Shown piece by piece: positions 3,379 to 35,178 of a DNA stretch of 64,000 nt. Location: positions 62,001-126,000 of the forward strand of contig CP137879.1 of NCBI GenBank assembly GCA_034406715.1, read 5' to 3'. The notes beneath the pieces are model-generated. The model had not been told where the DNA came from. It was given only the letters and a program-made list of their open reading frames with translations, and ran no database searches. The translations under genes were made by a program, and so were the position numbers. The stretch is from Rhodotorula mucilaginosa. Taxonomy: Eukaryota > Basidiomycota > Microbotryomycetes > Sporidiobolales > Sporidiobolaceae. The number at the start of each line of letters is the position of its first letter. Position 1 is the stretch's first letter.

Positions 3379-4001
3379 CCTGCTGCCGGGCGATCCGGAG
3401 TGCGTTATGGAGTTGTAGCGTGTCTTGACTGATGTGTAACCCTCTCTTGGCTGTCACACCAAAGCACAGATCTTCTGCAGACTGGCGCAGCTCGGGATGT
3501 GAGAGGAAGAGGAGGAGGAAGAAGAACATGGATGGTCCGACTGCTGTGACAGGCCGCAGGGGCCTCTTCGGACCGGGTTGTCCGCGGAGGACGGACCCAT
3601 CACGTGTACCACGCGCCTCCGAACGCCCGTGGCATACGGCGCCTATATTCCTGGACAACCAAGTTATGGTGCGCAAAAGAGTCGGTCCCGATGGCTACTT
3701 GTGCGTGGCTATTCGCGGCGAAACAAGCGCGAGCAAGTGGCGCAACTTGAGAAGGTCCAGTTACATTACTCTTGCCGTCCCCTTGGGGTGCTGGAGACAT
3801 GCGTAGGCAGCTTGCACACTGAAGATGAACTCTATCATGCTTTCTTTGCAGAATGGGAGCAAGAATGTGGGGGTCAGACCGAAGGAGAATTTGAGATGTC
3901 GTTGCGAGCTGCTCCGATTTCCAGGCCACCAACGCTCCTTTGAGCCTGTCTATGGTCACCCTACACCCAGGTCCTGCAAGCCCTTCCTGCCTCTCCTCCG
4001 G
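3379..4001. other. M1 upstream / M2 downstream region
   Basis: Apart from the motif at 3575-3588, a minus-strand open frame covers 3600-3959 but has no paralogue or recognisable domain. I treat it as promoter and leader sequence of M1 rather than as a gene. Confidence 0.35.
3575..3588 (-). promoter_or_regulatory. Shared upstream motif TCCGCGGACAACCC (gene M1)
   Basis: Read in the sense of M1 the sequence is TCCGCGGACAACCC, about 200 bp before its ATG at 3378. The palindromic core TCCGCGGA followed by CAWCCC recurs in front of M2, N1, N2 and N3 in the same orientation. It is probably a binding site for a sequence-specific regulator; that is inference. Confidence 0.5.
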
Positions 4002-4969
4002 TCACAGGTATGGCTGGCTGTGATAGATGACTCGGCGGCGATAACCTTGGACATGCGAGAGAGAGGATGGATTGGCGGATGGTCCTTGTTCTTCCTCTTC
4101 TGGCGTCCAGGAGTGCTGGAGTCTGCTCTGTCTGTGAGGCCTTGGTGGGTGCCCATGCACTGCTTCCGCAGCGGAGCTGCCCCGTTGATGCGAATGGGCT
4201 TCTGATTGATTCGTGTTCTGCTGCCTCATATTTCTGCATCGACGCAAAGCGAGAACCTGCATGTTGGACAATGATGCAAGAGATGGGTAAGGGGCCACAG
4301 AGATATATAAGAAAGCAAGCAAATCTAGCTGTGATGTTGCACCACTGTGGGAACTGTGGGGACTCACCGCGCTGGAATCCCCACGGATGGCCCTCCGGTC
4401 AAGTTCCCATTCCTGCATAGGAAAAGTCTTTCTCAGCTGTGAAGAGGTTACTCAAAAGGCAAAAAGCAAAACGAACAGCAGCCTTGAGCTTCAGGAGGCT
4501 ATCTGCCACAGCTTTCAAGTTGTAATCAAGGATCTCTGCACGGGCACGCTATCAGTTGTGCAGGTGAACTAGCCCAGATCATTCAGCCTGCAAAGAGAAC
4601 AACATCCTTACGCCGTTGTTCAGCCTCAGCCAGCGAGTAGTGTGGCTGTTCTTCGGGATGCTGCAGCCATCGAAAGGATTGGCTCGCGTCACCTTGGAGC
4701 CATGTCCACACTGCATGCCCAATTGGAGGAGATCAGCACCCAGGATCTATTGCACGCACACAGGAGTATGGAGTGAAAAGTGAGACCATTTACGACTAGC
4801 ACGGCAGAGGTTGGGATGTAAACAGGCGGTCAGCATTCCGCATTCGGGCAGATTGGCCGACGCGCGCGTAGACAGGCGGAGCAGGGCACTCACCGGCTTC
4901 TTCGAGTTGTTCGACTGTCTGTCTGCTCAAAAACTCCCGTATGTGCTTGGCTGGGGTGAAGGTGGGCAT
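4002..4969 (-). CDS. Unknown family M, copy M2 (multi-exon)
   Basis: This is the better preserved partner of M1. The predicted start exon is MPTFTPAKHIREFLSRQ...EQLEEA (ATG at 4969), with a GTGAGT donor. A short second exon follows. The third exon reads WTWLQGDASQSFRWLQHPEE and ends ..AEAEQRR at a GTAAGG donor. Then come a helical exon EILDYNLKAVADSLLKLK, the exon EWELDRRAIRGDSSA with a GTGAGT donor, and a final Ser/Gln/Arg-rich exon ending GYRRRVIYHSQPYL and stop at 4002-4004. Splice phases agree for exons 1 to 3. Similarity to M1 is patchy but spans exon order, the EWEL exon and the C-terminus with its stop. No enzymatic motif, signal peptide or membrane segment is seen. Function is unknown. 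Confidence 0.5.
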
Positions 4970-6224
4970 GTTGGTGCGCAGAGCGTGAGCGTCAAGTTGT
5001 GGCACAGCTCTTGAGATGGCTCTCGGCAGCGGGCCTGTGCTCTTGTCCCGGCACCACCAGCAGACGAGAGCACTAGTGGGAAGAGTGTATGGAGGGAGAG
5101 AGCGCTCCTCTTCTTCCCGGACGCAGGCGCCTCTCGAGCAATCTCGTGACCGGGATGTCCGCGGAGGAGTGACACGCAACCGTTGCGTCCACAGACTGTA
5201 GCGAGCTGCACAAGCTCCCACTTCGCCGTAGCATGCAAGAAGCCAGGCATGCGCACGGAGTCGGCAGCGCGTCTCAAGCTGGCCCGCCAGCGCGTCGCTC
5301 TCCTTAGCGGAACGGACGCGGCAAGACTTATAGCCAACCGGCAGTGCACCGAGAAGACAGGCATCGCAGCGGCAGGATTGCGCGACAAAGCAGCTGAGTT
5401 TGACCACACATTCTCAGGTTGGGGTTCGGATGGCGCATCGGTCAGCGGGACCGGGGTGGTCGCTTCGGGCGAGGCGTTTTAGTTCTGCAGCCTCAGTCCG
5501 CTGCCGGACGTTGCATCCCGGCTCAGCATTAAGCAGACGTCAAGAGAAAGGGGCGGTGGAGCTTGGTAGTATAGCGAGTCGCTGCCCTAGATCGTGATCC
5601 TCTCGGCGGAGCAGGCGGCGTGTCGAAGAGAGGCAAGGGTCAGCGGCAGAGGTGCGCGCACTGTCGACAGCACTTCCGCTCGTTCTCAAGGCTTGGTAGC
5701 CGCGCCTGCCGCACTCTGTAGGCGGCCGTGAGTGGCGCTCCGCGGGCTGTGTGAGCGCCAGCTTATGCAGCGAGTCGCGTGCGGCGGTAACTTACGGAAA
5801 GAGCTGAGACACTGATGAAGATCAGCAGGCGGTGGTGGTGAGTCCAGCAACACGCGGGAGCAGCGGGTCGGCGCGCTGACGAGCCCGAGGGAGGAAACCT
5901 CATAAGCAGGCAGCTTCCTTGTCCCAGTGCTTGGAAAGAGCACACCTGCGGTTGGCTGCGGCCGGGCGGAAGCTGCGGCGACTTTTGATCGTTCCGCGTC
6001 AACCAGACTTTTTCTGGGGCAACGCAAAAACGCTCGCCGCCTCTTTGTTGCCGTCCACCACTCTACAGCCTGCTCTTGGCCTGCTATACGATATACACAC
6101 AGAGAGCACTGGCTTCTGCCCAACTTGCCCGCTCCCGAACCAAGAACCAGCTCAAAGCAAGTCTCGGAACCGCCCGCTCGACTTTTCCGACGTCTTTCCC
6201 CAACCCCCGCCTGAATCGCTCGGA
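4970..6224. other. M2 promoter and 5' flank of the next gene
   Basis: This holds the M2 upstream motif at 5152-5165 and, further right, GC-rich sequence leading to the plus-strand gene at 6225. Several long open frames overlap here on both strands, as expected in GC-rich DNA. None has a recognisable domain, so none is annotated. Confidence 0.4.
5152..5165 (-). promoter_or_regulatory. Shared upstream motif TCCGCGGACATCCC (gene M2)
   Basis: In the sense of M2 the sequence is TCCGCGGACATCCC, about 185 bp before the ATG at 4969. It is the same 14-base element, orientation and spacing class as at M1, N1, N2 and N3. Confidence 0.5.
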
Positions 6225-6989
6225 ATGGCTTCCTACGGTGCGCAAAGCTGCCAGGGTCTCTCACAGAGACCCCAAGAAGCTGACCCGCGAGCGTACACAG
6301 GCCTCTCGGTGTTGCCTTCGCTCGCCGACTCGTCGCCCAACATGGATCGCCTCGCTCTCGGCGCCCGAAACGGCAACCCTCCCTCGCCGCTGTACGGTGA
6401 CGAGAACCCCCTCGGATCCTACTTTGCCATGCCGACTGCCGCCATGTACTCCCCCGCCGGTGGTTCCGGCACCCGCCGCGAGTCCAACGCCAGTGAGAGC
6501 AGTTCCGAATCGACGTCAGACGACGATTCGTCGTCGTCTTCGGCCAGTCGACCCTTCTCGCCCCATGTGACCAGGGCGGCTTTGCACGGCTCTAAATCCT
6601 CTACACACGGTCACGTGGCCAGTAGAGTGGCGGGCTCCTCGTCTGCGTCATCGTCATCACTCGCGTTGGCGGTCTCGGCGCGCAGTCCGTCGGCCTTGGC
6701 AGCATCCGTTTCGACCGCCCCCATCGTCGCCGAAGACAACGACGACGACGACGACGCCGCGCCGATCCAGCCCCTGCCGATGCACCTCCCCCGACCCAAG
6801 ACGAAGCAAGATCGCGACCGCGAGCGCGCAGCCGGGCGCGGACCCTCGAACGCCGGCGTCAAGCGCGAAGGACTCGGGACCCGCTTGGCGAGGAAACGCG
6901 CGGACAGCCTCAAGTGGGCCAAGTATGCCAACGTCGCGACCTTCCAGGTCGAACTCGGGCTCAGCAACGACGAGCTCCGGTCCGGGTGA
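6225..6989 (+). CDS. Uncharacterised acidic, Ser-rich protein
   Basis: A single open frame of about 254 residues runs from ATG 6225 (MASYGAQSCQGL) to TGA 6987-6989. The frame continues upstream to 5919, but sequence before 6225 reads like a leader. The protein has a Ser/Asp/Glu-rich block (about residues 90-115), an Ala/Ser-rich stretch, a run of aspartates (EDNDDDDD) near residue 170, and a basic C-terminal part (KTKQDRDRERAAGR, LARKRADSLKWAKYANVATF). The C-terminal 40 residues look ordered and could be the conserved part. No family is recognised. Basic and acidic tracts suggest a nuclear or nucleic-acid-associated protein, which is inference. Confidence 0.55.
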   Translation: MASYGAQSCQGLSQRPQEADPRAYTGLSVLPSLADSSPNMDRLALGARNGNPPSPLYGDENPLGSYFAMPTAAMYSPAGGSGTRRESNASESSSESTSDDDSSSSSASRPFSPHVTRAALHGSKSSTHGHVASRVAGSSSASSSSLALAVSARSPSALAASVSTAPIVAEDNDDDDDAAPIQPLPMHLPRPKTKQDRDRERAAGRGPSNAGVKREGLGTRLARKRADSLKWAKYANVATFQVELGLSNDELRSG

Positions 6990-7401
6990 GCGTTCGCGGG
7001 ACGACGGCGCGACCGAGGAGGTCATTTCGGGAGCCGGACTCTTGGCCTTTTTTCCCTTTCGCTCCTTCATCCGCTCTACCACTACAGACACACGCTTCCT
7101 CCGACACTGTACCATCTCACTCTTTCCCCTTTTTTGTTGTCATCATTTTGCTCCGGTTCACTCGCCCGACTTTTTCGTCCCTCGGAATCTCTTGCGCATC
7201 CCTTTTCGCATTTCAGTTGCAATGTGTTGTACAAAGCGCGTCTATCACCCTTTGTTGACATCTTTCCTGCGCTTGGCGCGGTTTTCTCTGCGTACACTGG
7301 AACGAGTAATCTTTCTTGACTTGAATGATTTCCAACCGAGAAAGGTGCCTCTGGATCAATCTAGATGAAGAATGAGAAGCGTGCCGCACAAGTTCCCACA
7401 A
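6990..7401. other. intergenic region between convergent genes
   Basis: This is the 3' flank of the plus-strand gene ending at 6989 and the 3' flank of the minus-strand M3 gene. It contains T-rich tracts and no supported gene. Confidence 0.4.
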
Positions 7402-8795
7402 TCAGAACGTGCGTCCGTAGATGCGCGAGCGACGGTAGTGTCCGACTCGCCCGACCGCGCGACCGCTGAGCGAGTGCTCCATGTCTCCGTCAGCGCTCTC
7501 TGAGAACGAGAGGAGGGAGCTCCGCCTACGCCTCTGGCGCTGCGAACTATCCCGTAGCCCGTAACGCCTCAGAAATTCACGTGCGTTGTTCTCGTAAGTT
7601 GGCTGGAAATAGTCGGGCCAGTCGTACGCAATCTTGTTGAGCAGTTCGCTGTCACCGCGTTTGGTAAGCTTGATCAGGCTGTTGACCTCGTCAATCTTGC
7701 ATTCATTGGAGTCTGTGTCAGTTGAGTAGTTACACTAGCTGAGCAGCGGACTTACGCAATGCCTCTTATACGCGTAACGGTCGCTGTAGCCGAGTGGCGG
7801 AAATAACGCCTCGTCGGCGCTGTCCAAGGCTGGTGGTTGCAATCTGTTAGCAGATTTCATGCATGCACAGCTAGGTCTCCCAACTTGGACGCACTTGGTT
7901 CAACTAGTGTCAAAGGTTTAGGAAAGGGACAGAAGGGTCAATTTCTTGACTGCCCAAGCGGAAATGGGAACTAAATCACCAGCATTAACTACGGGAAGAC
8001 CATAGCAGGTGCAAAGGGTATGTCAGCAATCCAGCAAGAAAAGCAACCCGGCCCACTCACGGTCTTCAAGCAGCCGATCAAGCTGTGGCAGAGGTAGAAT
8101 TCGCTCGGTAAGTGATGCGAAACAAATCAGGGCGGGCCGCGGCGGCATACTACTGACTTCAGTGTTAGCCTGCCGGTAGATTGACAGGTAGTGTTGCATA
8201 GTGGGCTTAGTGAGCACGTCGCTGGCTGCCTCGAGGCGCTCTTTAAGCTCGGTGAGGCGGGCTCGACCTTTCGTTGACTTTTTCGTCTTGAGTTGTTCCT
8301 CTGCGCTCAAACCATCCGAGGTCAACTGGTTGCCCAGGTCATTCAGATATGCCCAGGGAACTTACCAATACTCTCTGTAAACATTTCGGGCAATTAAACA
8401 AATCAATTAGCTGTGCATGAGATCACGTCGCGCTCGAGTTGTGTGACGGGGAGGGGCGTACTGATCTTGCGCGGGACTGAATGCAGGGCATAATCGGCTT
8501 TCCGCATCTTGAGCACGTCATCTCTGTTATCCGAATTGAGGAGTGTGCGCCAAGCTGGAAGCAAGGGCATGTAGAGAAGAGGCGGACCGGGAACATGATT
8601 AGCTCAGGCCCTCCGTTGAAACTTGAAAAGTGGCGAGGCGCTTCACCCACCTTCACGGACTGCAGGTTACAACAATCTATGTGTGAGCACAAGATTGCTC
8701 AACAATTGACCAATTCCTGTGGACTTACTACTTTTTGAGCTATTTTCTAGGTGGCTGTTGAAAGCTTTGATGGACTCTTGGACGCTGTCTGTCAT
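7402..8795 (-). CDS. Unknown family M-like, copy M3 (many small exons)
   Basis: The exon chain can be read in one frame. MTDSVQESIKAFNSHLENSS is followed by a 26-nt exon (NCCNLQSVK) and an exon LGAHSSIRITEMTCSRCGKPIMPC with a Cys pair pattern CxxC...C. Next come a possible 9-nt micro-exon (RVL), a coiled-coil-like exon (LTSDGLSAEEQLKTKK...YLSIYRQANTE), LDRLLED, LNAGDLVPISAWAVK, ALDSADEALFPPLGYSDRYA, and a last exon IDEVNSLIKLTKRGD...REFLRRYGLRD. It ends RVGHYRRSRIYGRTF with the stop at 7402-7404. Most introns have consensus ends, one acceptor would be AAG. The C-terminus closely matches the decayed copy at 9172 and loosely M1/M2. No known domain is recognised; the CxxC could bind zinc. Confidence 0.5.
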
Positions 8796-8946
8796 TCTTG
8801 ACTGAGGCGTGAGTTTGCGTGTGGAGGACTGCCTTTCGGGTTTCTGTGCGGGAGCTAAGATGGGGTGCGGATTCCGAAGGTGAAGAATAGGAGAAAGCCA
8901 TGCAATCTATGCAGATGCAGACATCGTTCAAAGGACGTTTCTCCGC

Positions 8947-8958
8947 GGGATGTCCGGA
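8947..8958 (-). promoter_or_regulatory. Variant of the shared upstream motif (gene M3)
   Basis: In the sense of M3 the sequence is TCCGGACATCCC followed by GCGGAG, about 150 bp before the ATG at 8795. It keeps GGACATCCC but changes the palindromic core, so it is a weaker example of the element. Confidence 0.3.
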
Positions 8959-9171
8959 CGCCGGACACCGCCACAGGTGCTCGCCCCCCCTTCACTCGCG
9001 TGATAGGCGGGCCGCGGAATGCCGGCGAATGTCCATCTATAGCCGACAAACCTGGACCCGCTGTGAGCTTCTCACTACCTTGTCTCGAGGGGTGACCTTG
9101 CAACATCCCAAAGTAAACTTCCTCCACGACAAACACGTTCAAATGCTAGCATATATCTGCTGCACCTTGCT

Positions 9172-9300
9172 TCACCCTGCGCATCCGTAGATACGCAAGC
9201 AACAACAGTGTCCAACCGGACAACCGGACAAGCTGCTGACGAAGAAGGGGCCTTCGAAGGGGAGTGTGCTCACAACAAACTCCCCGGACCTCCCGGGAAG
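9172..9300 (-). pseudogene. Decayed 3' end of an M3-like gene (M4)
   Basis: On the minus strand the frame ending at TGA 9172-9174 reads VGHCCCLRIYGCAG and stop, against VGHYRRSRIYGRTF and stop in M3. The DNA match continues upstream for roughly 100 bp and then fades, so only a 3' remnant is recognisable. Relative to M3, most changes in the matched part are C to T at CpG sites on the sense strand (CGT to TGT, CGC to TGC, TCG to TTG), turning two Arg and a Ser codon into Cys, Cys and Leu. This looks like an inactivated tandem copy. Confidence 0.45.
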
Positions 9301-9857
9301 GCAGCTTAAGCTTGCCACGCTTGCCAAAAACGTTTCTGACCACTTTTTGCTTTACTATACAGTAGGAATGTCGATGGGGTGGCTTCTCACTGCTTGCCAG
9401 CTCCATCCCTTTCACGCGACTCAACTCCCACCAATCCACATTTGAGTCTCTTTCTCACTCCTTCTTGTCAAGGAAGTGAATGTTCAGATTGAAGATGGTC
9501 ATACTCAATAGTATCAGACTTGACCGGACAGCAGTGCCTCAAGCCCCGTCGTGCACCGCCCAGGAGTTTACGGAAGTTGGTTGAGCATCTCAGTTGACTT
9601 CTTGGGGAGCCCTTGCTCTCCCCTCTCGAGCGTCATCACTTCTTCACATATTTGTTCTGAAGTTTTAGGTCTCGCTTGCTCATTCCAGACTGTCCATGGC
9701 TCCTTGTCTGTGATCCGCTACCCTCAGGGCCTCCAACCTGCGCAGAGGGCATTTTGCATCAAGCTTGAGAAACCAGACTTTTCTTCCTGCATACTTCTAG
9801 GAGAGGACCACATTCAGTTCAGGTGTTTCATACCTAGGGACGAACAATAATTGCACA
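9301..9857. other. low-GC spacer, no supported gene
   Basis: A plus-strand open frame at 9551-9850 (about 99 residues) has no paralogue in the window and no recognisable domain. I leave it unannotated. The segment is the 3' flank of N1 and lies inside the less GC-rich island. Confidence 0.35.
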
Positions 9858-12385
9858 TCAGACCACGGGGTTTGAGAGCCCTGTCTTCCTCATCTTTGAA
9901 GGAGGGGGTTCTTTTTGGAAAGGAAATGCACGTCGCTTGCCACGCGCAAGTGGTGTAAAGGCCGGAGGTGCGGGATGGTTGCTGTCAAGCTTGTACCATA
10001 ACTCAATGCAGTAGGCCGGAGCTTCAGCAGGGTCTGCTTCAACAGATGGCAGTGGCTCTCGCCAGAGGTGGAGTGACCAACAAGTTGTTGTGTTGGCAGC
10101 TGCAGACTCCCGGAAAACATCCCGTTGGAAGCATACTGCTGAGTATTTGCTGCCACTTTTTCCACTCACTGCAAGAAGAGGTTTAGAGTTTATGTAAGAC
10201 CTGCAGGCTCAGTCAGCAGAAAAAATAGGAATGCGTAACTGACATGTGATCTTTCTCCCTTGGGAATCCATCAGCCAGTGCGCACTGGGGATGCTGGCTG
10301 ACTTGCTCATGCATGCTGCAAGGCGTTCTGTAGGCCATTCATAGCCGCTGCTTTTCTGTTTTGCATCCTGAAGATACTTGAGACATGCCGGTCCCGGAAC
10401 GATCAAGTTGTTCTTCTGATTGAAGGTGTCGGGTGGGTTTAGAACCTTTGTCCAGAACCTTTCTCCATCTTTGTATCTTGAGATATCAGCTGGCCTGGAA
10501 TTGACGTTGTAAGCAGAAAGATGGAGGATCAACGGATTTGTGGCTGAGAGGCACAAAGAGAAGAGGGTGTCAGCAGTAGACGACGCTCTGGACTGCAGGC
10601 TGAGGGGCGAGGGAAGGGGACAAGGCACCTGTAGCATCTCCTTTTCCCACCTGAAAATCTGATAGTTTGCGGAACTTGTGATTTGTCACACTTGGTCGAC
10701 CCGGATTGTCTTCTGTGATCCCGAGGGTGAATCCTTGCAAGTACGTGTCAACATGGTGGAGAAATCTGGGCACAGTTGCGCCAGTGCTTAAGCGTAGCTC
10801 TTCAAGCTGCAGCAAAGGCTCATAGTCAGGGCTCTTCTGTCCTACCATGTTCAATTTTCTTTAGAAAGGCATGGACTCACACAGAGGTTGCGGGAACTCA
10901 AGCGAAGCGCCTCGTCTTGGAAGAGCTTGGGCCTTGCTTGCAGACTCATCATAGCATACTCCACTGCATTACGGCCAACCTGTGCCGCTTTGCAATCTGC
11001 AAAGCGGAAGTCATAGGACAGCGTCAAAGAGAAGAGTATTACTTCTGGCAGGCTCGATACGCCACCTGGAGGATGTGGCAAGAGCTGTAAGGACCAGGTG
11101 ACAGAGTTGATGCCCCCCTCTTTATAGACCCCAGTGCTTGCAAATTCCTGAGCATTGCGCTGGTGAAGTTTCACCCAGTACCTGTCCGTGGACGGTCTGC
11201 AGAAACTCAATGGAAACCTCAGTCAGCAGGGAGATCTGCATAGGAGGGGAATGCTAACTTGCCTGCAAAAGGGAGTAGCTTGTCACCTGGCAATATAGGC
11301 CACTGCCTGTCCAGAACTCCCTCCTTGATTTGATCTGTAGGCCACATATAATTCCCATATCTCTTGTGTCCAGAATCAGGGGTCCAGCCCTGCAGAGATA
11401 CTGGTCCAGGGAAATCGAGTGTATGCTTAATCCCCCGGAGGAGTTCACTGTTCCGGGCCTGTTGAGGTAACAGGTAGGCAACAGGAACCTGCTTCAAGTT
11501 TGCTTTCGAAGGCTTGACAATCCGAGTCTTGACCGTGTAAGCTGGTAGGCAAACATGGAGAGGCTTTTCAGCTTCACACCAGGGCAAGTTGCCACAGTGT
11601 CTAGGTCAGCATACGCTTGCAAGACAGACCGGGAAAAAGAAAAGAAAGAAGAAAAAAAGGGCTGCACCTGTCGCATCCCCCTCCTGGACCGCAAACTGAA
11701 AGGGTTCAAGTAGACGAAATTTGTGATTGGTGACTTCAGGTCGCTCTTGACGCTCCCGGGTGATACCAAGAGTGAGCCACTGCAAGTAGACGTCGATGTT
11801 TCGCAAGAAGCCGAACAGTCTGCGCTGCGCGTGCACTGAATCTTCCTCTGCGCCCAGAAAGTTGCGGAACTGGGTTCAAGGGGAGTCAGCCCCTTTTGTA
11901 CGTGCATTACAGACTGTGACTCACAAACGCCTTGCGAGCTTCTGACGGCGGCTCGAGATCTGCAGGACCTGTACGGACGTCCGTGCTGGGTCGGTACCCC
12001 TTCCTTCGCCTCGCTCGTCATCAACTTCCCATTCTAAGTCTCCTCCTCGCTCCTTTCTTTTCGAACGTCACTAACACTTCTTTTCTTGCAGATGATCTAC
12101 TCTATCGTACCGGACTCAAAGTGTCGGCCGACGCCTCAAGATTTCGTTGTCGGATCAAGGAGGCGGTGTTGGCGGATACTCTCGGTCGTCTCGTGTTGTA
12201 GCTCTCTTCTCCCTTAGCATTCCTGCCTCGCTCATATCTCTCGAAATCCAAACTCGAATCACTGTTTATCGGCTCTAGTCCGTCTACACGACCTACGACC
12301 CGACGAAGCACGCAGTAGACCCGCCCTCGCATCGAGCTGAGAGCGGTGTCCCTGCAGTCCGCCGGTCCCGACACCAACGACGACA
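9858..12385 (-). CDS. Unknown family N, copy N1: two-unit repeat protein
   Basis: I do not recognise this family. Two units follow each other. Unit 1: FRNFLGAEEDSV..FLRNIDVYLQWLTLGIT..HKFRLLEPFQF..EGDATG; then PLHVCLPAYTVKTR..FPGPVSLQGW..YMWPTDQIKEG..GDKLLPFA; then YWVKLHQRNAQEF..VTWSLQLLPH..LTLSYDFRF. Unit 2 repeats the order: VDTYLQGFTLGIT..GDATG; NPLILHLSAYNV..VPGPACLKY..YEWPTERLAACM..GRKI; GKSGSKYSAVCFQRD..CWSLHLWRE..APAYCIELWYKLD. It ends in a basic tail, stop at 9858-9860. Each piece is an exon with consensus splice sites and conserved phase (the GDATG exon always ends after the first base of a codon). Predicted size is about 650 residues. The N-terminus is uncertain: the ATG at 12385 matches that of N2, but a foreign block at 11998-12260 interrupts the first exon. 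No transmembrane segment or catalytic motif is obvious. Confidence 0.6.
11998..12260 (+). repeat. Dispersed repeat R, copy 1, inside the N1 5' region
   Basis: This block matches 33855-34095 in the same orientation. Both contain a pyrimidine tract, CTAACACTT, a CAG acceptor-like end, ATGATNNACTCT-type sequence, and then a stretch that on the plus strand reads GLKVSADASR here and GLKVSADSSR in the other copy. It is absent from the equivalent place in N2, so it was probably inserted into N1. It looks like a fragment of an unknown spliced gene, intron 3' end plus exon. No terminal repeats are seen. Confidence 0.45.
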
Positions 12386-12521
12386 TGATGCAGGAGCAGT
12401 GTTTCGGCAAGCTGTTTGACGCGCGAGCACAGGATGCTTCCGTAACTTTGTGCAAGAGCAGAGTGACAAGTCTTCTGTTGAAAAGCCCTGCGTCTTCTTT
12501 GAGGGAGGGCGACGAGATGTC

Positions 12522-12535
12522 GGGATGTCCGCGGA
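12522..12535 (-). promoter_or_regulatory. Shared upstream motif TCCGCGGACATCCC (gene N1)
   Basis: In the sense of N1 the sequence is TCCGCGGACATCCC, about 140 bp before the ATG at 12385. Downstream of it N1 and N2 also share GACTTGTCACTCTGCT, so the whole leader region is homologous. Confidence 0.55.
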
Positions 12536-22862: not shown

Positions 22863-22889
22863 ACGCACGCGCACGCACGCACGCACGCG
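22863..22889. repeat. short (GCAC)n microsatellite
   Basis: About six imperfect GCAC units lie in the 315-bp spacer between ALG3 and the acetyltransferase gene. A CT-rich tract follows at about 22950. No other feature is seen in this spacer. Confidence 0.7.
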
Positions 22890-23076
22890 AGAGAGAATCG
22901 TCATCATCAGTCGCGCATTCTCTACACTCTGCAGTCGCGGGACTTGTTCGTCTCTCTCTCTCTGCACGAATTCAGAGACGCTTCTGTTTGATCCGTCACT
23001 CCTCGCCCCTGCGCATTGAAGGCTTCTTTCCGCCCGCCCCCCGCTTTTGTTACAGTCCCCCAGCTTGGCAGCAGCG

Positions 23077-26000: not shown

Positions 26001-26419
26001 GCAAGCACCGGCAAACGCAGCGCTTCCTCGACGCGCTCCAGTCGTACTTGATGGAGGTGTACAGTCTCCTGAAGCAGCTGCATTCCGAAGCGAACCGGAA
26101 GCCGAACTCTGTACGTTCTTCCCTCGTTTGCTCGCTCGCAAGCTACGCATTCTCTGACTCGCGAATGGCGTACTCGCAGGTATTTGTCGATCACTTTGCG
26201 GGCGAGATCGACGCGCAGACGGGCAAGCCGATCCGGCAGGAGTACAAGCGGAGCGGCACTCGGACTCCGCTCGAGTACTCGGACGGGTACGGGTTCTACG
26301 GCGCGCTCTCGCAGGACGTCGAGAAGGCGCTCGAGAAGGTCAAGGGCAAGGATGGCAGGAACGGCCGCGTCAAGACCGATGCGCGGCCGGGGACGAGGAT
26401 TGCGAAGGTTGAGCTCTGA
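23077..26419 (+). CDS. YAT2: Carnitine O-acetyltransferase, Yat2-like
   Basis: This enzyme transfers acetyl groups between CoA and carnitine, for shuttling acetyl units to mitochondria during growth on fatty acids or C2 compounds. The first exon MPYRPATVTETSVIEGYEFP begins at ATG 23077. The choline/carnitine acyltransferase fold is recognisable from LPRLPIPPLEDTMKRYLDAL onward. The catalytic His motif is CFEHSAVDGHTVLR (about 24660-24700). The carnitine-binding segment is TYEPAMTKNFLHGRTEAIRS, and the STISTSN...FGFGPVVSDGLGIGY block carries the CoA/acyl site. No mitochondrial presequence or peroxisomal C-terminus is evident (it ends AKVEL), consistent with a cytosolic Yat2-type enzyme. An acidic Ser-rich insertion (SSSSDEDDSDG) lies near residue 660, and about a dozen introns split the gene. 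Confidence 0.88.
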
Positions 26420-26945
26420 GTCGATGTCCTTCCGCCTCGGCGGAAGGTGTGCATACTTGTGTGTAGCCAGTATAGTACTATGAAGCAACAAGCCCTGTGC
26501 TTTTTGTATGAAGCTCTTGCCGGCAGTGTGGGAGTGTGCAAGGGCTTGGTGCGCCACTGAACACTTGGCGATGCCGGATTTGCAGAGCATACGCAAGAGC
26601 TAGGGAATCAGATTAGTATGCTTGTTCAAACTACAGGATGTAAGAGGTTGTGTGGTATGCATGCTATAGAGACTGTAGCTGTAAAGATCTGACTCATTCA
26701 GGCTCACAACTTTTACTTGTAAGCCTTCGCTTCAAGGCAGGAACAAAGAGATGTTCTCTCAGCTGGTGTCGCAAGGTGCATCTTCCAGTGCCAAGCTAAA
26801 TGCATGGAGCTGACAGTGTATGATGGATGGGCTCTCTTGCATGTTGCCTTGCCTCTGGTCAAGAAGAACCAAGTAAAAATGCATGACTGAGGCAGGGTCC
26901 GTGTTTCACATATCCATGATCAAGGGTTGTGAGAGCACCCAAGGT
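26420..26945. other. spacer at the left edge of the N2 island
   Basis: This is the 3' flank of the acetyltransferase gene followed by AT-richer sequence that is the 3' flank of N2. The composition change sits at about 26460. No supported gene is seen. Confidence 0.4.
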
Positions 26946-29081
26946 TTAACGTGCTTCCGGAACATATTCTGGAGGGACAGGTTGGCGGAAGTCAAGGTCA
27001 TAACACAGCTCAAGGCAATAGGCGGGAGCTTCAGGCGGTGTCATCTCGACAGGATCAAGTTGCTCTCGCCAAAGCTGGAATGACCAGCACACTCTCCTCG
27101 TGGCCGGGCCTGCTTGAGATCGTGAGCAACAATCCTGCTGGAAGCATATTGCGGCATACTTGCTGCCGCTTTTGCCGCAAACTGCAAAAAAAAATGTGTA
27201 CAAGCATGCGTCAGACCCGCAACCTCAGGTTGAGAAAGAGAAAAAGAAAAGACAGAGCAGTAGACAAAACTGACATAGGATCTTTCTCCCTTCAGAATCC
27301 AACAGCCAATGCATGCTGGGGATGCTGCCTGACTTGCTCATGCATACTGCAAGGCGTGTTGTAAGCCATTCATGTGTTGCCCTTTGACCTCTTGGATGAT
27401 TTGTATACTGAAGGCAAGATGGTCCGGGGAGAATCTTTCTGGACCTGAGAGCTGCGACATCAGAAGTCAACACCTTTTGCCATGCTCTGACCCCTCTTGT
27501 GTGGACTGAGGCGTTCTCGTAATGCAGTGCTAAAGCAGGAAGATCAATCCTCAGTGGATTTTCAGCTTAGCAGTGTAAATAAGTAAATTGGTCAGCCCAC
27601 TAGTGCCGGACTTGCGGCATTGTAATGCCAGAGTTGCCCGGGCATTGCCTGTGAAACGCACCTGTAGCATCACCAGTGCTGACATGGTACATTGAGTTTG
27701 AGAGCACACGGAAGCGGTAGTCACATAATGGTGGTTGTGCTTGTTGTTGTGCTGTTATACCAAGGGTAAACCACTGCAGGTACCCGTCAATCCAACGGAG
27801 AAAGCTCGGCAGGGGTTGACCTCTGCCCAGCCCAAACTCTGCCAGCTGCCGTTTGACACTTTTTGTCAGCTCTATGCAGTGCACTCCAAGAAGAGAAGAC
27901 CAACCATGACTTACGAAATGGCTCCGGGAGTCAGGGGGTCCCTGTACATTCACCTCATTTGACGGAGTCGACAAGGGATTGCAAGACTTGTACCTCCTGT
28001 ATGCATCAATTGCCGCAGGTGTTTGGAGTGCAAATACAAAAGGCACAAAGGCAACATGTGCTGCTTTGATATCGACAAAGTTGAAGTTGTAGCACAACTT
28101 GAGGCAGTATAGTGGCTGTGTGGGGGCGCCTGAATGGTCTTTGGGCCAGACCTGGACAAACCAAGTGATAGTATTATAGTTGATTCTGTCTTTTGCATGC
28201 ACTCCTTTTGATGCGGAGCTTTGGATGTCGTGCTGGTAAATCTTGATCAAGTACTTGCACCCCTTATGGGTAGCAGCGACTATCATTGTGACTGCATGAA
28301 TGGCCAACAATGTTAAGTGGTTACACTGGGAAACAAAGAACAATGCTCATAGTTTGAGTGGAGCACATACCTTTTACTGGCAAGATTTGGTCACTTCTCA
28401 ATACTGGCCATCGTGCTTCTTGTACCGATTGTTCCAGCCTGTCGGTTGGCCAGTAGTATTCACCAATGATCCTCTGTCGCTCAGAGAGACGCCAGCCCCG
28501 GAGAGAGACTGGTCCGGGGAAAGAGACTAGATCTTTTGTTGCTGTCGGTTTCCCAATGCGTCCCAGCTTTCGAGGTACGAGGTGCGCAGCACGAGTTCCC
28601 CCATTTTCAGCAGCCCGAGTTGCTACTTTGTAAGCTGGTAGGCTAACATGGAGAGGCTTTGCAGCTTCAGGGCAAGGTATTGTGTGGGTCAGCAGTCCTT
28701 TCTTGGTGAGGTGTGCCAACAGGAAACCGAATGCTGCACCTGTCGCGTCTCCCTTCTGGACCGCAAACTGAAAGGGTTCAAGTAGACGAAATGTGTGATT
28801 GGTGACTTCAGGTCGCTCTTGACGCTCCCGGGTGATACCAAGAGTGAGCCACTGCAAGTAGATGTCGATGTTTCGCAAGAAGCCGAACAGTCTGCGCTGC
28901 GTGTGCACTGAATCTTCTTCTGCGCCCAGAAAGTTGCGGAACTGGGGTTGAAGGGTGTCAGCCTCTTCCATACTTGTATTGCCAGACTGTGACTCACAAA
29001 CGCCTTGCGAGCGTCTGACGGCGGCTCGAGATCTGCGGGACCTGGACGGACGTCCGATGGCCCGGACACCGAAGACGACAT
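26946..29081 (-). CDS. Unknown family N, copy N2: two-unit repeat protein
   Basis: This has the same architecture as N1, with a complete first exon: MSSSVSGPSDVRPGPADLE (ATG at 29081) ending ..ARKAF at a GTGAGT donor. Unit 1: FRNFLGAEED..IDIYLQWLTLGIT..GDATG; AAKPLHVSLPAYKVATR..FPGPVSLRGW..YYWPTDRLEQSV; KGCKYLIKIYQHDIQS..ITWFVQVWPK..PLYCLKLCYNFNF. Unit 2: KRQLAEFGLG..IDGYLQWFTLGIT..GDATG; ENPLRIDLPALALHY..LPGPSCLQY..MHWLLDSEGRKIL; GKSGSKYAAICFQQD..VCWSFQLWRE..APAYCLELCYDLDF. Stop at 26946-26948. All exons join in frame with consensus splice sites and short introns, so it looks intact at about 620 residues. Exons 1-2 are nearly identical to N1 while later exons are strongly diverged. The function is unknown. 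No signal peptide or membrane helix is clear. Confidence 0.65.
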
Positions 29082-29216
29082 GGTGGGAGGAGCAGTTTTT
29101 CGGCGCATTGTGTGATGTTTGAGGACAGACTGCTTGAACAGCTGGTAGGAAAGCAGAGTGACAAGTCTCTGGTCAAAGGGTGCCGCGTTTGCAAGAACGG
29201 AGGGCGAACGAGCGTC

Positions 29217-29230
29217 GGGATGTCCGCGGA
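29217..29230 (-). promoter_or_regulatory. Shared upstream motif TCCGCGGACATCCC (gene N2)
   Basis: In the sense of N2 the sequence is TCCGCGGACATCCC, about 136 bp before the ATG at 29081. The position relative to the start is nearly the same as in N1. Confidence 0.55.
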
Positions 29231-29315
29231 CCTGAAGCAGCAACACCGATTTCGCGAGCTCGCAATGGCCAATAATGGCCAGTGGGCCCGGCCCGAGCTG
29301 CATCTCTTGGCGGCG

Positions 29316-29328
29316 GCTTGTCCGCGGA
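29316..29328 (-). promoter_or_regulatory. Second TCCGCGGACAA element upstream of N2
   Basis: Here the sense sequence is TCCGCGGACAAGC, keeping the core and CAA but not the CCC. It lies about 235 bp before the ATG and could be a second binding site. Confidence 0.35.
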
Positions 29329-30480
29329 TCTGAAAGCATCGCGGCTCGAGCTGGGGCCGCGCGAGGGATGCGCCCGCCAAACCAAAGAGAGCTAGAGCGT
29401 CAACCGGACTCGTTCTAGCATTGGTGACGACACACTGCGGACAGTAAGCTGCCTTGGGCGTATAGGGCAAGCAGGCTGAGCAGCCAAAGTCGAGCAGATG
29501 CGCTGACGATGGTGGTTGAATCGATCAGGCTTTTTTTGCAGCGAGTCCCTGTCAATTAGGCACCTTTCGAGTATGCTTACATCACATGGGAGCCCTGGCT
29601 ATCAGCATAGCCTGAAAGCCTCGTTTTGAGTGGGAAGAGCTGGTCATTGGCGGGCGCGGATTCGCAAAGTAACCGGGCTATTGCGAGTTGAAAGAAAATT
29701 GGCAGCAAAAAGCGGTCGGTACGCTGTCGTGTCGGAGCCTCATCGGCCACAGCGGGCGGAGCAAGAGACTTGTCAATATTGAGGCATTGTAATAGTGACA
29801 TTGCCGGTTCGCATTGAGCGAGCAAGCAAGCGAGCGATGGTCAGTAAGGAGTCTGAACTCTTCCGGGTCGAGGCGCCCGCGCAAGACTGCAGCTGCCAGC
29901 AAGAGCGCGGCACCTGTATACTGGGATGATGCTCTAGCACCCCAGACAAGCATGTATTGGGAAGGGAGGGCCTCGATGCATCCAGGTGACCCTGACCCGC
30001 TTGTGAACCCGTCGCCAGCAGTTTAGCTCCGGAGCACGAAGGGTCACTGATTGCTGGAGCGCTCAACGTCAAGAAGTCTGCATGGACGAATCTCTGAGCC
30101 GGGAGCGCAAGAGAGCGCATGAGAGCGCCTTCGATGGTGCAATGCAGCGGCGGATCCCGCTTCGGAGAGCGCTCTTCGAAGCAACTTGAAGTCTCGGGTC
30201 GAGGGTGACGATTCTCGGAGAAAGAGACAAGAGACAGTGTGACCTGCTTGGTGTATATAGTCACAACGCGCGGGGCGCATGCGACGACGAAGCAGGATCG
30301 GAGGAGCGAAGTGTGATCCGCGCTCTCCGCGGATGAGAAGGCTGACGCGGAACGGAACGCGAGCGGACGAGAGCGCGAGCTCAGCCTCGAAGAGACTCGG
30401 CGTCACTCCGTCTACAGAGCCTGTCGAGGAATCCAAAGTTCCTTGCCAAGCACTCGAACCGAACTCCCTTCGTCTACATC
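29329..30480. other. divergent intergenic region between N2 and eIF4A
   Basis: About 1.1 kb shared by the N2 upstream region and the eIF4A promoter. A TATATAG-like element lies near 30253 and a lone TCCGCGGA core at 30325-30332, without the CAWCCC extension. A minus-strand open frame at 29773-30264 has no recognisable domain, and I do not annotate it. Confidence 0.4.
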
Positions 30481-32780
30481 ATGGCTAGCGAACAACCCGC
30501 GGCGCAGCAGTGAGTCGCCGCCTCTCGCCTCTCGCCTCTGAGCCTTCGCATCCCTCGTCCGCCCGACCACCGCGTCGCCCGTTCTCGCTCCCTATAGCGT
30601 GTGGGAGACGGTGTGGCGGGCAAATTCAGGCCATTCGGGCTGCCCGATCGAGCGCAGACGCTCGCCCGAGCAGCAGTGCAGGAGCGCCGCCACTTTGCGG
30701 TCGTCCCGGACGCGCTGACCTTTTGTGTTGCCCACCCGCCTTTTCTCTCTCGCCCGCGCCGTGCTGTGTGCTACCAATTCGGAACCGCACCTGCGCCTAC
30801 GCCATGCACTCCCTCCGCCGTGACCACCGCCCTCGACGTTGCGCGCGCTCAGGCCGGAGGCTCAGGCCGATGCCCAGAACGCCGGTCTCGAAGTCTCGGA
30901 GAACCTCATCGAGTCCAAGTCAGTCGCGCCCGCTCTTTATCCTCGGTGCCAAGATGCGGAACTGACGCTCTTGCCAAACGTGCAGCTGGGACCAGGTCGT
31001 CGAGTAGGTCGCCTGCTGGTCGCCGCGTCGAGGCAAGAGGAAGGAATGCTGACCGCGTGCGTGTGTCAACAGCAACTTTGACGACATGAACCTCCGCCCC
31101 GAGCTCCTCCGTGGTATCTACGCCTACGGGTGAGTCTTTCCCGTACCGCGGCTCCGTTGTTGGTGACGCGCGGACAGCTGACGGTTGCCTCCACCCTCGC
31201 TCCGGCGACGCACAGTTTCGAGCGCCCGTCGGCCATCCAGCAGCGCGCCATCATGCCCGTCGTTGCCGGCCACGACGTCATTGCCCAGGCCCAGTCCGGA
31301 ACCGGCAAGACGGCGACCTTCTCGGTCTCGATCCTCCAGTCGATCGACGTCTCGCTCAAGCAGCCGCAGGCCCTCGTCCTCGCCCCGACCCGTGAGCTCG
31401 CGCAGCAGATCCAGAAGGTCGTCGTCGCCCTCGGCGACTACATGAACATCGAGTGCTTCGCCGCCGTCGGTGGCACGTCGGTCCGCGAGGCCATGGACAA
31501 GCTCAAGGAGGGCGTCCACGTCGTCGTCGGAACCCCCGGTCGCGTCTACGACATGATCCAGCGTCGCGCGCTCAAGACGGACCACATGAAGATCTTCTGC
31601 CTTGATGAAGCCGATGAGATGCTCTCGCGCGGATTCAAGGACCAGATCTACGACGTCTTCCAGCTCCTCCCGCCGACGACCCAGGTCGTCCTCCTCTCGG
31701 CCACCATGCCCCAGGACGTCCTCGAGGTCACGACCAAGTTCATGCGCGACCCGATCCGCATCCTCGTCAAGCGCGACGAACTCACCCTCGAGGGTATCAA
31801 GCAGTTCTACGTCGCAGTCGAGAAGGAGGAGTGGAAGTTGGACACCCTCGCCGACTTGTACGAGACGGTCACCATCACCCAGGCCGTCATCTTCTGCAAC
31901 ACCCGCCGAAAGGTCAGCCCCGGGTTCCTCGCGTTCGTTTCCCTCCGATCCGCACGCCGCTGACTTTTGCCCGCGTTCCGCAGGTCGACTGGCTCACCGA
32001 GAAGCTCACCGAGAAGGAGTTCACCGTCTCGGCCATGCACGGCGACATGGACCAGCAGCAGCGCGAGGTCATCATGAAGGAGTTCCGCTCGGGCTCGTCG
32101 CGTGTCCTCATCACCACCGACTTGCTCGCCCGTGGTATCGACGTCCAGCAGGTCTCGCTTGTGAGTCGTCGCCGTCTTTTTTGTTTACCTGGGGTTGTCG
32201 TCGGTATTCGTCGGGTGGGGAGACGTCGGGGGCGGGTGCTGCTGGTGGGAAGGATCGATCAAAGGGGAACCCTCCAGCTCCTTCGCAGCTTCCCACGCCC
32301 CGCCTCGCCTCGCCTCGCATCACCTCGATTCGACGCCAGGTCTCTCGAGGTCGTCTTCAAGTCCAGTATCGATACTGCGCTGGCGGGGAGATGGTGATCG
32401 AGGCAACGAGAGGCTCGGGCGACCCGGTCCTTCGACACCACCAGCAACTCTCCGAGCAACTTTGCACGCATCCTTTCGAGCCGCCTTGCTGACCGTTCCC
32501 CGCTGCACAGGTCATCAACTACGACCTCCCCGCCTCTCGCGAGAACTACATCCACCGGATCGGTCGCGGCGGCCGTTTCGGTCGCAAGGGTGTCGCGATC
32601 AACTTTGTCGCCGCCGAGGATGTCCCGGCGCTCCGTGACATTGAGCGCTTCTACAACACCCAGGCAAGTCTAGCTATATTTCCTCCAAGTTCTCCCTAGG
32701 ACCAAATGCTGACCTTCGAATTTTTTGCGCGCTGCGCCCAGATCGACGAGATGCCGATGAACGTCGCCGACCTCATCTAA
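30481..32780 (+). CDS. TIF1: Translation initiation factor eIF4A, DEAD-box RNA helicase
   Basis: eIF4A is the ATP-dependent helicase of the eIF4F cap-binding complex. All DEAD-box motifs are visible: Q motif [12 protein letters not shown], motif I AQSGTGKT, Ia PTRELAQQ, Ib TPGRV, II DEAD ([12 protein letters not shown]), III SAT (LLSATMP), [45 protein letters not shown]. It ends with [10 protein letters not shown] and TAA. Exon 1 is only [10 protein letters not shown] (ATG 30481), followed by several short introns within the first 700 bases. Length, about 400 residues, is normal. The intron after VQQVSL (32161-32513, about 353 nt) is unusually long for this window. The last two exons and the 3' flank are duplicated immediately downstream. 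Confidence 0.95.
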
Positions 32781-33084
32781 GCGCGCCTTGTCTACCCTGC
32801 ATGGGCCTGTCGCTTTCGACCTCTAGACTCGGTGGTGGCATCACCCAGCCACACAGCAGTTTCCCTCCCCTTTTCTTCCCAACCCCGACGCCACTTCTCT
32901 CCATTCTGTTGCAATCTCCCTCTCCCTCCTCCTCTCTCTCCCCGCCCCCCAAAAGCCTTTCTTTACCCCCAACCCCCTCCTATTGGCACCCCAGCCTGTG
33001 CGATTCGCTCGTTGTCTCGTTAATCTCGCGTCTCTTTTCAGCTTCACTGCCGCTTGATCTGGTTGTAGCGAGAGACCGGCCGGC
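32518..33084 (+). repeat. Direct repeat, left copy: eIF4A 3' end and flank
   Basis: This covers the penultimate exon, its following intron, the last exon and about 300 bp of 3' flank. I found no mismatch against 34127-34693, at a constant offset of 1609 bp. The next roughly 50 bp remain very similar with a few changes, then similarity falls sharply. Confidence 0.85.
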
Positions 33085-33439
33085 GGGAAAATCTCCGGGC
33101 TTACTTGTATACTTTTGCTTTTTACCCTCACAGCTGTCACTTCTCGAGAGGACTTGCACTCTAGTGTGGCGGACTCTGGTCGTTGTCGCCGCTACGCGCA
33201 CTGAATATCGTGCTAATTTCCCTCCGTTCGCTTCATGTGAGCAAATAATCTGCGCGCAGTTTCACTTGCCCGCCTATGCACCGTGAAGCGAACCTACAAT
33301 GCTTGAAGTGCGTCTATGGAGAATCTCCTATCATCCTTTGAGCACTCCTTCCCGAGTCTCTTTGTGCTCCTCCTCCAGCTGCGGCCCACTCACCGCGCTG
33401 ATTCTTCGTCCTCACTCGAAGTCGCGTGATCTGCTGTGA

Positions 33440-34389
33440 ACTGTGATGCGCAAATGTTTCTCCAAGTCCAGCTTGCTCTTCTTGACACGCACAGGCAGAC
33501 GACATCGACAATGCGAGTGCAACGCGGATCCCAATTCGCCACCAACTTGCTCGCCGGCGGTGTCAACATCCAGCGGCGGCGTCTTCTTGGCTTGTGAGTA
33601 CTTGTCTTACTTTCTATCGCAGTACAAGCTCGTCCGCTGGTAAGGTTTTCAGGGAACTCGCCTTGCGTTCACTGCCGCAGCGAGTCCTCGCGCGTCAAAG
33701 AGTGCGTCTCTTGTTGTCACAACAAAAGCAGCTAGTGTTCCGAGCTGTAATTGGAACCCAGTACAGTATCAATCACGGTACAAGCTATAGCGGGCTGACC
33801 AGCCCTGGGACTGCTGGACCGGCAATTCGTCCTGCGCATCAATCGAGCTCGACACATCCCAAGTCTCACTCCCGTTTCCTTTCCTCTTGCGAACGAAACT
33901 AACACTTTCTTTTCACACAGATGATACAATCTGCGTGCTGGGACTCAAAGTCTCGGCGGACTCCTCAAGAAGCTGTTGTTTGTCGTCGCAGGGCCGTGGA
34001 GCGAAAGTTGATTTCGCGCACTCCGTGCGATCGCAACTCTCTTGTATAGCTAGCTCTCCCTTTCCCCGGCTCACTCTCTGAAATGCACACGGCATTAATT
34101 GTATACTGTATCTACTGCAGCCATGTACTACGACCTCCCCGCCTCTCGCGAGAACTACATCCACCGGATCGGTCGCGGCGGCCGTTTCGGTCGCAAGGGT
34201 GTCGCGATCAACTTTGTCGCCGCCGAGGATGTCCCGGCGCTCCGTGACATTGAGCGCTTCTACAACACCCAGGCAAGTCTAGCTATATTTCCTCCAAGTT
34301 CTCCCTAGGACCAAATGCTGACCTTCGAATTTTTTGCGCGCTGCGCCCAGATCGACGAGATGCCGATGAACGTCGCCGACCTCATCTAA
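33440..34389 (+). pseudogene. Partial tandem duplicate of the eIF4A 3' part
   Basis: The left part is a degraded version of the exon encoding [13 protein letters not shown]: at 33525-33595 the DNA still matches CACCRACTTGCTCGCC and GTCCAGC, and ends at a conserved CTTGTGAGT donor. The enlarged intron-equivalent holds repeat R copy 2. From 34127 the last two exons are perfect ([19 protein letters not shown]...MNVADLI, TAA at 34387-34389), with an ATG at 34124 just before them. The N-terminal ATPase half is absent, so this cannot be a working helicase. It might serve as an alternative 3' exon set for eIF4A, but that is speculation. Confidence 0.6.
33855..34095 (+). repeat. Dispersed repeat R, copy 2, inside the eIF4A duplicate
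   Basis: This matches 11998-12260 in the same orientation: pyrimidine-rich lead, CTAACACTT, TTTTCNNNCAG, ATGAT, then sequence reading GLKVSADSSR on the plus strand. Identity is roughly 70 percent by eye, highest around the acceptor-like junction. It lies in the intron-equivalent of the partial eIF4A duplicate. Confidence 0.45.
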
Positions 34390-34693
34390 GCGCGCCTTGT
34401 CTACCCTGCATGGGCCTGTCGCTTTCGACCTCTAGACTCGGTGGTGGCATCACCCAGCCACACAGCAGTTTCCCTCCCCTTTTCTTCCCAACCCCGACGC
34501 CACTTCTCTCCATTCTGTTGCAATCTCCCTCTCCCTCCTCCTCTCTCTCCCCGCCCCCCAAAAGCCTTTCTTTACCCCCAACCCCCTCCTATTGGCACCC
34601 CAGCCTGTGCGATTCGCTCGTTGTCTCGTTAATCTCGCGTCTCTTTTCAGCTTCACTGCCGCTTGATCTGGTTGTAGCGAGAGACCGGCCGGC
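34127..34693 (+). repeat. Direct repeat, right copy: eIF4A 3' end and flank
   Basis: This is the partner of 32518-33084, offset 1609 bp, with no mismatch found, including intron and 3' flanking sequence. Identity in non-coding parts argues for very recent duplication or gene conversion rather than selection on protein sequence. Confidence 0.85.
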
Positions 34694-35164
34694 AGGAAGT
34701 CTCCGGGCTTACTTGTATACTTTTGCTTTTTACCCCCAAAGTCGTCACTTGGACTCGATTGAGAGGACTTGCCATAGGTTGAGCTTTTATGGATTCCGGC
34801 CCTTCGTCGCCACTGCGCAATGAGAATGTGCTTTCCCTAAGTCAGAATGCGGTGTGAACGCTTCGGCGGTTTTCCCCTGCTCGCTGTGCACCATGAAGAG
34901 CCTGCACACGATTGGAATGCGCCCATGTCAATCTCCTACTCCTCCAAGCACTCGAGCGCCCTTTTCTCGAGCCCCTACATCCCGCCGCTCGCTACGCGCC
35001 GGTCACAGCTTGCCAAGCTGATTCTTTGTCCTCACTTTGTGTCTCGTGCTTCCCCGAGAGATTTGACGTTGTATTCCTAGTACACACGCGTCCCGCCTGC
35101 CTGTCCTTGTCGAGCACGAGCCAACAAAGCTCGAAACGTCTCCAAAAGCTCAAGCGCTCAGGCC
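34694..35164. other. diverged right flank of the eIF4A duplicate
   Basis: This is homologous to 33085-33440 but strongly diverged: short runs such as GAGGACTTGC, AATCTCCTA and GCTGATTCTT are shared in order. No gene is seen. It leads into the N3 upstream region. Confidence 0.4.
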
Positions 35165-35178
35165 TCCGCGGACAACCC
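35165..35178 (+). promoter_or_regulatory. Shared upstream motif TCCGCGGACAACCC (gene N3)
   Basis: TCCGCGGACAACCC on the plus strand, about 130 bp before the ATG at 35298. Because N3 lies on the opposite strand from the other family members, the strand switch of the motif shows that its orientation follows the gene. Confidence 0.55.

What the first reader, a model, noticed from the sequence alone, without database searches (positions are those of the whole stretch)
3575..35178. One 14-base element lies before five genes of two unrelated-looking families
TCCGCGGACAWCCC occurs at 3575-3588 (M1), 5152-5165 (M2), 12522-12535 (N1), 29217-29230 (N2) and 35165-35178 (N3), always in gene-sense orientation, 130-210 bp before the proposed ATG. 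It switches strand with N3. A second partial site lies at 29316, and a variant before M3 at 8947-8958. I noticed no full match elsewhere. The core TCCGCGGA is the palindrome bound by yeast Pdr1/Pdr3-type zinc-cluster factors, but here the asymmetric CAWCCC extension is also conserved. This suggests that families M and N form one co-regulated system.
Basis: partly seen in the sequence, partly recalled or inferred. Interest (0 to 1): 0.85.

Follow-up and report, generated by a model that had tools for sequence, protein, structure and literature searches.

The report
Shared promoter element of orphan genes
In what appears to be the red yeast Rhodotorula mucilaginosa, one nearly invariant 15-16 base DNA sequence sits just ahead of many otherwise unrelated, fast-changing gene families of unknown function, so a single regulator may switch them all together.

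Summary
All five 14-base sites are exact in the window. The genome holds 41 exact copies (reversed control 0), and 176 if position 12 may be C or G. The true element is about TCCGCGGACAW(C/G)CCGA. Flanks lose similarity at its edges, so it is not a copied flank.

M and N are two of at least ten sequence-unrelated orphan groups, mostly tandem families. The element usually lies 90-230 bp before the modelled ATG. In 31 paralogue promoter pairs, 29 share nothing beyond shuffles once the element is masked. Five orphan models lacking an exact copy have a degenerate one.

"Always gene-sense" is true only of the window: 18 of 32 copies before orphan models are sense and 14 antisense, and one family shows both.

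Best reading: a DNA-binding site, probably of one zinc-cluster-type factor, defining a large regulon of genus-restricted orphan families. Expression, binding and the factor are untested. Of 41 exact sites, 17 have a modelled orphan start within 320 bp, 8 only an ordinary one and 16 neither. A random sample of G-class sites failed because the genome server stopped answering.

The parts
3573..3588 (-). element before M1 (TCCGCGGACAACCCGG)
5150..5165 (-). element before M2 (TCCGCGGACATCCCGG)
8942..8958 (-). possible degenerate copy before M3 (TCCGGACATCCCG, two core bases missing); not scored as a site by the weight matrix
12520..12535 (-). element before N1 (TCCGCGGACATCCCGA)
29215..29230 (-). 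element before N2 (TCCGCGGACATCCCGA)
29313..29328 (-). second element before N2, G-class (TCCGCGGACAAGCCGC)
35165..35180 (+). element before N3 (TCCGCGGACAACCCAA; lacks the usual G at position 15)
2387..3378 (-). gene M1 (start MSVYTPNTETQEFLQQ; split into three models by the gene finder)
4002..4969 (-). gene M2, 177 aa, 5 exons (model)
7652..8795 (-). orphan gene M3 (model, 10 short exons, uncertain; kinship with M1/M2 not shown)
9680..12386 (-). gene N1; start by comparison with P0003, rest from the model (the gene finder began it at 12021)
26946..29081 (-). gene N2; start by comparison with N1/P0003 (the gene finder began it at 28971)
35298..37576 (+). gene N3 (model holds one stop, probably at a splice junction)

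Best explanation
The element, about TCCGCGGACAW(C/G)CCGA, is a promoter-proximal binding site for one sequence-specific DNA-binding protein. It defines a large regulon of lineage-restricted orphan gene families: at least ten groups unrelated by sequence, of which M and N are two. Tandem duplication carries the site along with each gene, promoter and protein then diverge, and selection keeps only the site. It works in both orientations, usually about 90-230 bp before the ATG. The palindrome CCGCGG plus a further CCG five bases on suggests a zinc-cluster (Zn2Cys6) factor contacting CGG/CCG triplets. Shown: the element, its independent contexts, its placement before modelled genes and its persistence among diverged paralogues. 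Inferred: protein binding, the factor's class, common expression.
For: 41 exact copies against 0 for the reversed pattern; 251 against 5 with up to one mismatch, exact ones included; 135 G-class copies against 0. Over 41 exact sites no position outside 1-16 exceeds 0.25 bits in the range examined, -20 to +35. Element at score >= 11.9 within 400 bp upstream of 32 of 53 orphan-class gene models against 13 of 79 ordinary-class models; in the window alone 4 of 9 against 0 of 17. Distances: median 134.5 bp, 30 of 32 between 80 and 260 bp. Of 31 paralogue promoter pairs, masking the element leaves 29 no more alike than shuffles, both orientations tried. Of 26 orphan models without an exact-pattern copy, 5 have a degenerate copy above a threshold that about 0.5% of random 400-bp stretches pass: L022:1192, L026:1644, L028:5497, L044:1345, L044:3137. 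N family, nine gene loci by my grouping: 5 have a sense element with at most one mismatch 253-291 bp before the matched domain, N1 is a sixth by its own ATG, one more has it antisense. Family K has it sense in L021/L022 and antisense in L023.
Against: No expression, binding or factor data. Orphan gene models come from my own gene finder, whose orphan class was seeded with 15 reading frames lying beside the element, and nearly all loci were fetched because they hold the element, so 32/53 versus 13/79 is partly circular. Of the 41 exact sites, 17 have a modelled orphan start within 320 bp, 8 only an ordinary start and 16 neither; 11 of those 16 are in loci of only 801 bases. Two of the 8 (L019, L043) look like a Met-Ser-Ala-Asp start codon read backwards; others lie near an aminotransferase (L011), a permease (L015) or a CAP protein (L024). 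21 of 53 orphan models show no element. In 7 of 31 paralogue pairs the element is not the best shared stretch. The random sample of G-class sites was never delivered, nor was a search with M.
Confidence: 0.76

Rival explanations
1. The element is a leftover of duplicated flanks or the end of a mobile element, carrying no function.
For: Genes lie in tandem arrays and sites cluster: 42 neighbour pairs under 10 kb against 11 expected.
Against: Flanks are unrelated immediately outside the element. Paralogues 24-46% identical in protein share nothing beyond shuffles in 29 of 31 masked promoter pairs. One family carries both orientations.
Confidence: 0.04
2. It is a directional core-promoter or 5'-leader (RNA) element rather than a transcription-factor site.
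For: In the window the five exact copies are sense and 133-210 bp before the proposed ATG.
Against: 14 of 32 copies before orphan models are antisense and one family uses both orientations. No Rfam family matches in the window. No element before 17 of 17 ordinary gene models in the window.
Confidence: 0.07
3. It is a chromatin or recombination element (boundary, silencer seed, duplication hotspot) that builds or silences the arrays.
For: Sites cluster, and 64 of 133 placed sites lie within 150 kb of contig ends against 23.5% expected.
Against: Within 50 kb of ends there is no enrichment (14 of 133, p = 0.16). The narrow distance to modelled ATGs fits a promoter better. Clustering inflates the end enrichment and contig ends are only assumed to be chromosome ends.
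Confidence: 0.1

Closest known systems
Pleiotropic drug resistance element (PDRE, TCCGCGGA) bound by yeast Pdr1/Pdr3
   Same: Identical 8-base palindromic core, upstream position.
   Different: Here 15-16 conserved, asymmetric bases; no ABC transporter domain among 20 proteins or parts scanned beside sites; factor unknown.
DOG box of cyst nematodes and STATAWAARS of the pinewood nematode (promoter motifs of effector families)
   Same: One short promoter motif recurring before several unrelated, diversified gene families.
   Different: Those genes are effectors made in gland cells, and the DOG box is 6 bases (ATGCCA) with up to 16 copies per promoter (passages of PMC10946958). Here the element is far longer, and 1 of 29 proteins has a hydrophobic N-terminus. 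Copies per promoter were not counted systematically here; N2 has two.

Membership tests
PDRE / Pdr1-Pdr3 site | core TCCGCGGA | tested here: met
   PDRE sequence from passages of PMC11111045
PDRE / Pdr1-Pdr3 site | lies before drug-efflux (ABC) and other PDR genes | tested here: not met
   no ABC transporter domain in 20 proteins or parts scanned beside sites; limited sample, and ABC genes of the genome were not checked for the element
PDRE / Pdr1-Pdr3 site | bound by a zinc-cluster activator | not testable with these tools
   no binding data; factor not sought in the genome
lineage-restricted effector promoter motif (DOG-box type) | shared promoter motif across unrelated gene families | tested here: met
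lineage-restricted effector promoter motif (DOG-box type) | genes encode secreted proteins | tested here: not met
   1 of 29 with a signal-peptide-like N-terminus by a simple hydropathy rule; 11 of 56 ordinary models by the same rule
repeat or transposon end | homology extends beyond the motif | tested here: not met

The most novel reading that the evidence does not exclude
The element marks one switchable repertoire of intracellular, rapidly diversifying recognition or conflict proteins (allorecognition-, killer- or element-defence-like). Many protein families, some perhaps of common origin beyond recognition, would be recruited under a single master regulator, so that the cis-element is more conserved than any of the proteins it controls.
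Probability: 0.15. Interest if true: 0.85.

Novelty: new variant of a known kind. Interest (0 to 1): 0.62.

Why it matters
Orphan gene families are usually studied one at a time and stay without a function. A single 16-base tag that recurs at well over a hundred places in one yeast genome gives a way to find such genes, group them and look for the one factor and condition that turn them on. It also offers a clean case where a regulatory site outlives the sequences of both promoter and protein.

Tried and rejected
Flank duplication: rejected. Fixed orientation: rejected. A first comparison of ATG-opened frames on both sides only leaned to sense (37 of 56 sites longer on the sense side, 19 on the other). 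A second motif at fixed spacing: none within the -20 to +35 range examined; CTTGGC is about 2.4 times denser in orphan promoters with the element than in ordinary promoters without it (2.10 against 0.89 per kb) but is not placed. Common origin of all families: hhalign linked K with the L028 family (87%), the two parts of N (99.9%) and weakly L034 with L036 (58%); every other pair was below 5%, M-N and my impression of N-L025 included. One-class gene finder: missed the orphan genes, replaced by a two-class one. Structures of K and N relatives: mean pLDDT 42 and 35, so no fold search was made. The masking was faulty (masked letters matched each other); one search tried masked pairs in one orientation only; one search repeats it in both and is the one cited. 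Papers, listings only: motif strings (40 of 183 papers listed), Rhodotorula promoter motifs (15 of 44, 4 of 4), orphan families (15 of 212), R. pacifica and Rhodotorula genomes (10 of 21; two papers with Rhodotorula genomes seen there, PMC12509554 and PMC12866564, were not read). Nothing about this element was seen, which does not prove that it is unpublished. In PMC5821985 the only TCCGCGGA found is in a primer.

Full report
OBSERVATION. All five sites are exact and at the stated places, and no sixth exists in the window. The window lies in G000, a 20.35 Mb assembly of 19 contigs. The organism is inferred to be Rhodotorula mucilaginosa or a very close relative: an N-family exon matches the R. 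mucilaginosa protein C6P46_001081 (88% identity over 19% of the query), and family K matches Rhodotorula sp. JG-1b (46% over 55%) and R. pacifica (31% over 97%) proteins.

IS IT MORE THAN CHANCE. TCCGCGGACAWCCC occurs 41 times in the genome and its reversed control 0 times. Up to one mismatch gives 251 against 5. TCCGCGGACAWGCC occurs 135 times against 0, so 176 copies have C or G at position 12. Of the TCCGCGGACAAGCC copies, 112 carry G at position 15: 56 with A at position 16 and 56 with another base. Over the 41 exact sites, position 15 is G in 39 and position 16 is A in 23; no other flanking position from -20 to +35 exceeds 0.25 bits. The element is therefore about TCCGCGGACAW(C/G)CCGA.

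NOT A COPIED FLANK. Flanks differ from site to site. Seven families had two or more members with a modelled start, giving 31 promoter pairs of 320 bp. After masking the element, 2 of 31 pairs were more alike than shuffles at p < 0.05, both orientations tried. The best shared stretch scored higher with the element than without in 24 of 31 pairs (with masked pairs tried in one orientation only, gave 4 of 31 and 28 of 31).

WHAT IT LIES BEFORE. A one-class gene finder, which learned plausible splice signals by itself, did not model M and N. A second coding class, seeded with 15 reading frames beside the element, recovered most of them. Orphan-class models with the element and at least 90 aa (29) have a median of 267 aa, a mean of 3.9 exons, GC3 of 0.59 against 0.76 for 56 ordinary models, and 1 of 29 has a signal-peptide-like start (11 of 56 ordinary). 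None of 10 spliced models beside the element (nine orphan-class; one, L044:4999, classed ordinary) has a Pfam match above cut-off, nor do 9 other correctly typed pieces. Families with members 24-46% identical lie in L021/L022/L023 (K), L025, L026, L028, L044 and L045, besides M and N; L013 holds an N relative. Profile comparison links K with the L028 family (87%) and weakly L034 with L036 (58%), and shows the internal repeat of N; every other pair is below 5%. Counting M, N, K plus L028, L025, L026, L044 and L045, and the single or weakly supported groups L010, L013:493, L016/L017 and L027, gives at least ten groups without detectable kinship; the single-gene groups rest on gene models alone.

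PLACEMENT AND ORIENTATION. With a weight matrix and a threshold at the 99.5th percentile of random 400-bp stretches, 32 of 53 orphan-class starts and 13 of 79 ordinary starts have an element within 400 bp upstream (Fisher p = 2.5e-7). The seeding and the choice of loci make this partly circular. In the window alone 0 of 17 ordinary models have it and 4 of 9 orphan-class models do; N1 is missed because its model starts late, and M1 is split. Distances: median 134.5 bp, 30 of 32 between 80 and 260 bp; 18 sense and 14 antisense. All 15 seeds lay on the sense side, so the antisense cases were not built in. Family K shows both orientations. Less biased support: of 26 orphan models without an exact-pattern copy, 5 have a degenerate one above threshold, where about 0.1 would be expected.

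SITE BY SITE. Of the 41 exact sites, 17 have an orphan-class start within 320 bp on either side (14 of 26 with long flanks, 3 of 15 with 801 bases), 8 have only an ordinary start and 16 have neither. Among the 16 are N1, L026:4503, L036, L041 and L042, which show candidate orphan reading frames by eye. Of the 8, L019 and L043 read ATG-TCC-GCG-GA on the other strand, a start-codon coincidence; L011 lies near an aminotransferase, L015 near a permease, L024 near a CAP protein. Eight G-class sites fell in the window and in loci fetched for exact sites: six are upstream of orphan-class models (N2, L013, L021, L023 and two in L025), one (L026:448, at the locus edge) precedes a frame related to that of L026:4503, and one (L027:2975) is ambiguous. 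This is a small, clustered stand-in for the random sample that could not be fetched.

A search with the N2 exon gave 12 matches, which I group into nine gene loci. Five have a sense element with at most one mismatch 253-291 bp before the match (N2, N3, and C2 near 1,485,758, 1,373,649 and 1,372,187). N1 has one 149 bp before its proposed ATG. C2:1,346,861 has an opposite-strand one-mismatch copy about 300 bp away. C2:1,344,433 shows none. C16:40,109 shows none among exact and AAGCCG copies, but other one-mismatch copies on that contig were not listed. With 251 sites in 20.35 Mb, a given 300-bp sense stretch would hold one by chance about 0.2% of the time. The same test for M homologues could not be run.

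DISTRIBUTION. 153 of the 176 sites entered the test; 133 of these lie on contigs of known length. 64 of 133 are within 150 kb of a contig end against 23.5% expected, but only 14 of 133 within 50 kb (7.8% expected, p = 0.16). 42 neighbouring pairs are under 10 kb apart against 11 expected. Clustering inflates the first figure, and contig ends are only assumed to be chromosome ends.

MECHANISM. A site that keeps its sequence and rough distance, occurs in both orientations and is the sole clear conserved part of diverging promoters behaves like a transcription-factor site. The core equals the yeast PDRE, bound by the zinc-cluster proteins Pdr1/Pdr3 (passages of PMC11111045). The conserved arm with a third triplet (CCG) is not part of that element and suggests a different or more specific factor. 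This last step is inference.

WHAT IS KNOWN. The nearest parallel is the promoter motif of unrelated effector families in plant-parasitic nematodes (DOG box: passages of PMC10946958; STATAWAARS: listing and the same passages). There the genes are effectors; here they are not evidently secreted. Relatives of N (4 records), K (3) and M (2) were found in the protein collection; the three whose source name gives an organism are all Rhodotorula. That search is word-based and could miss distant kin.

CHANGE ON RE-CHECK. The footprint figures were recomputed with masked pairs in both orientations, and the site-by-site count was added. Confidence in the best explanation was lowered from 0.78 to 0.76 because 24 of 41 exact sites have no modelled orphan start close by.

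Noticed in passing
window 32513-32812 and 34122-34421: A 300-nt block repeated at 99% identity 1609 bases apart, in and after the 3' part of the DEAD-box helicase gene model and lying before N3.
   Followed up: partly
window 9680-12386, 26946-29081, 35298-37576: The two halves of the N proteins match each other over about 234 columns (hhalign 99.9%); a low-confidence model of a relative suggests pairs of strands.
   Followed up: partly
L019:4470, L043:399: The reverse strand of the ACATCCC form spells ATG-TCC-GCG-GA, so Met-Ser-Ala-Asp/Glu starts of ordinary genes can mimic the element.
   Followed up: partly
L017, minus strand, about 1-2483: An 827-aa single-exon frame beside an orphan array; it looked retroelement-like by eye (recalled, not searched).
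   Followed up: no
promoters in L009-L045 and the window: CTTGGC/GCCAAG is about 2.4 times denser in element-bearing orphan promoters than in ordinary promoters without it (2.10 against 0.89 per kb), without fixed spacing.
   Followed up: partly
window 8001-12000: G+C dips to 0.52 across the M3-N1 stretch; the other 4-kb blocks lie between 0.565 and 0.615.
   Followed up: no
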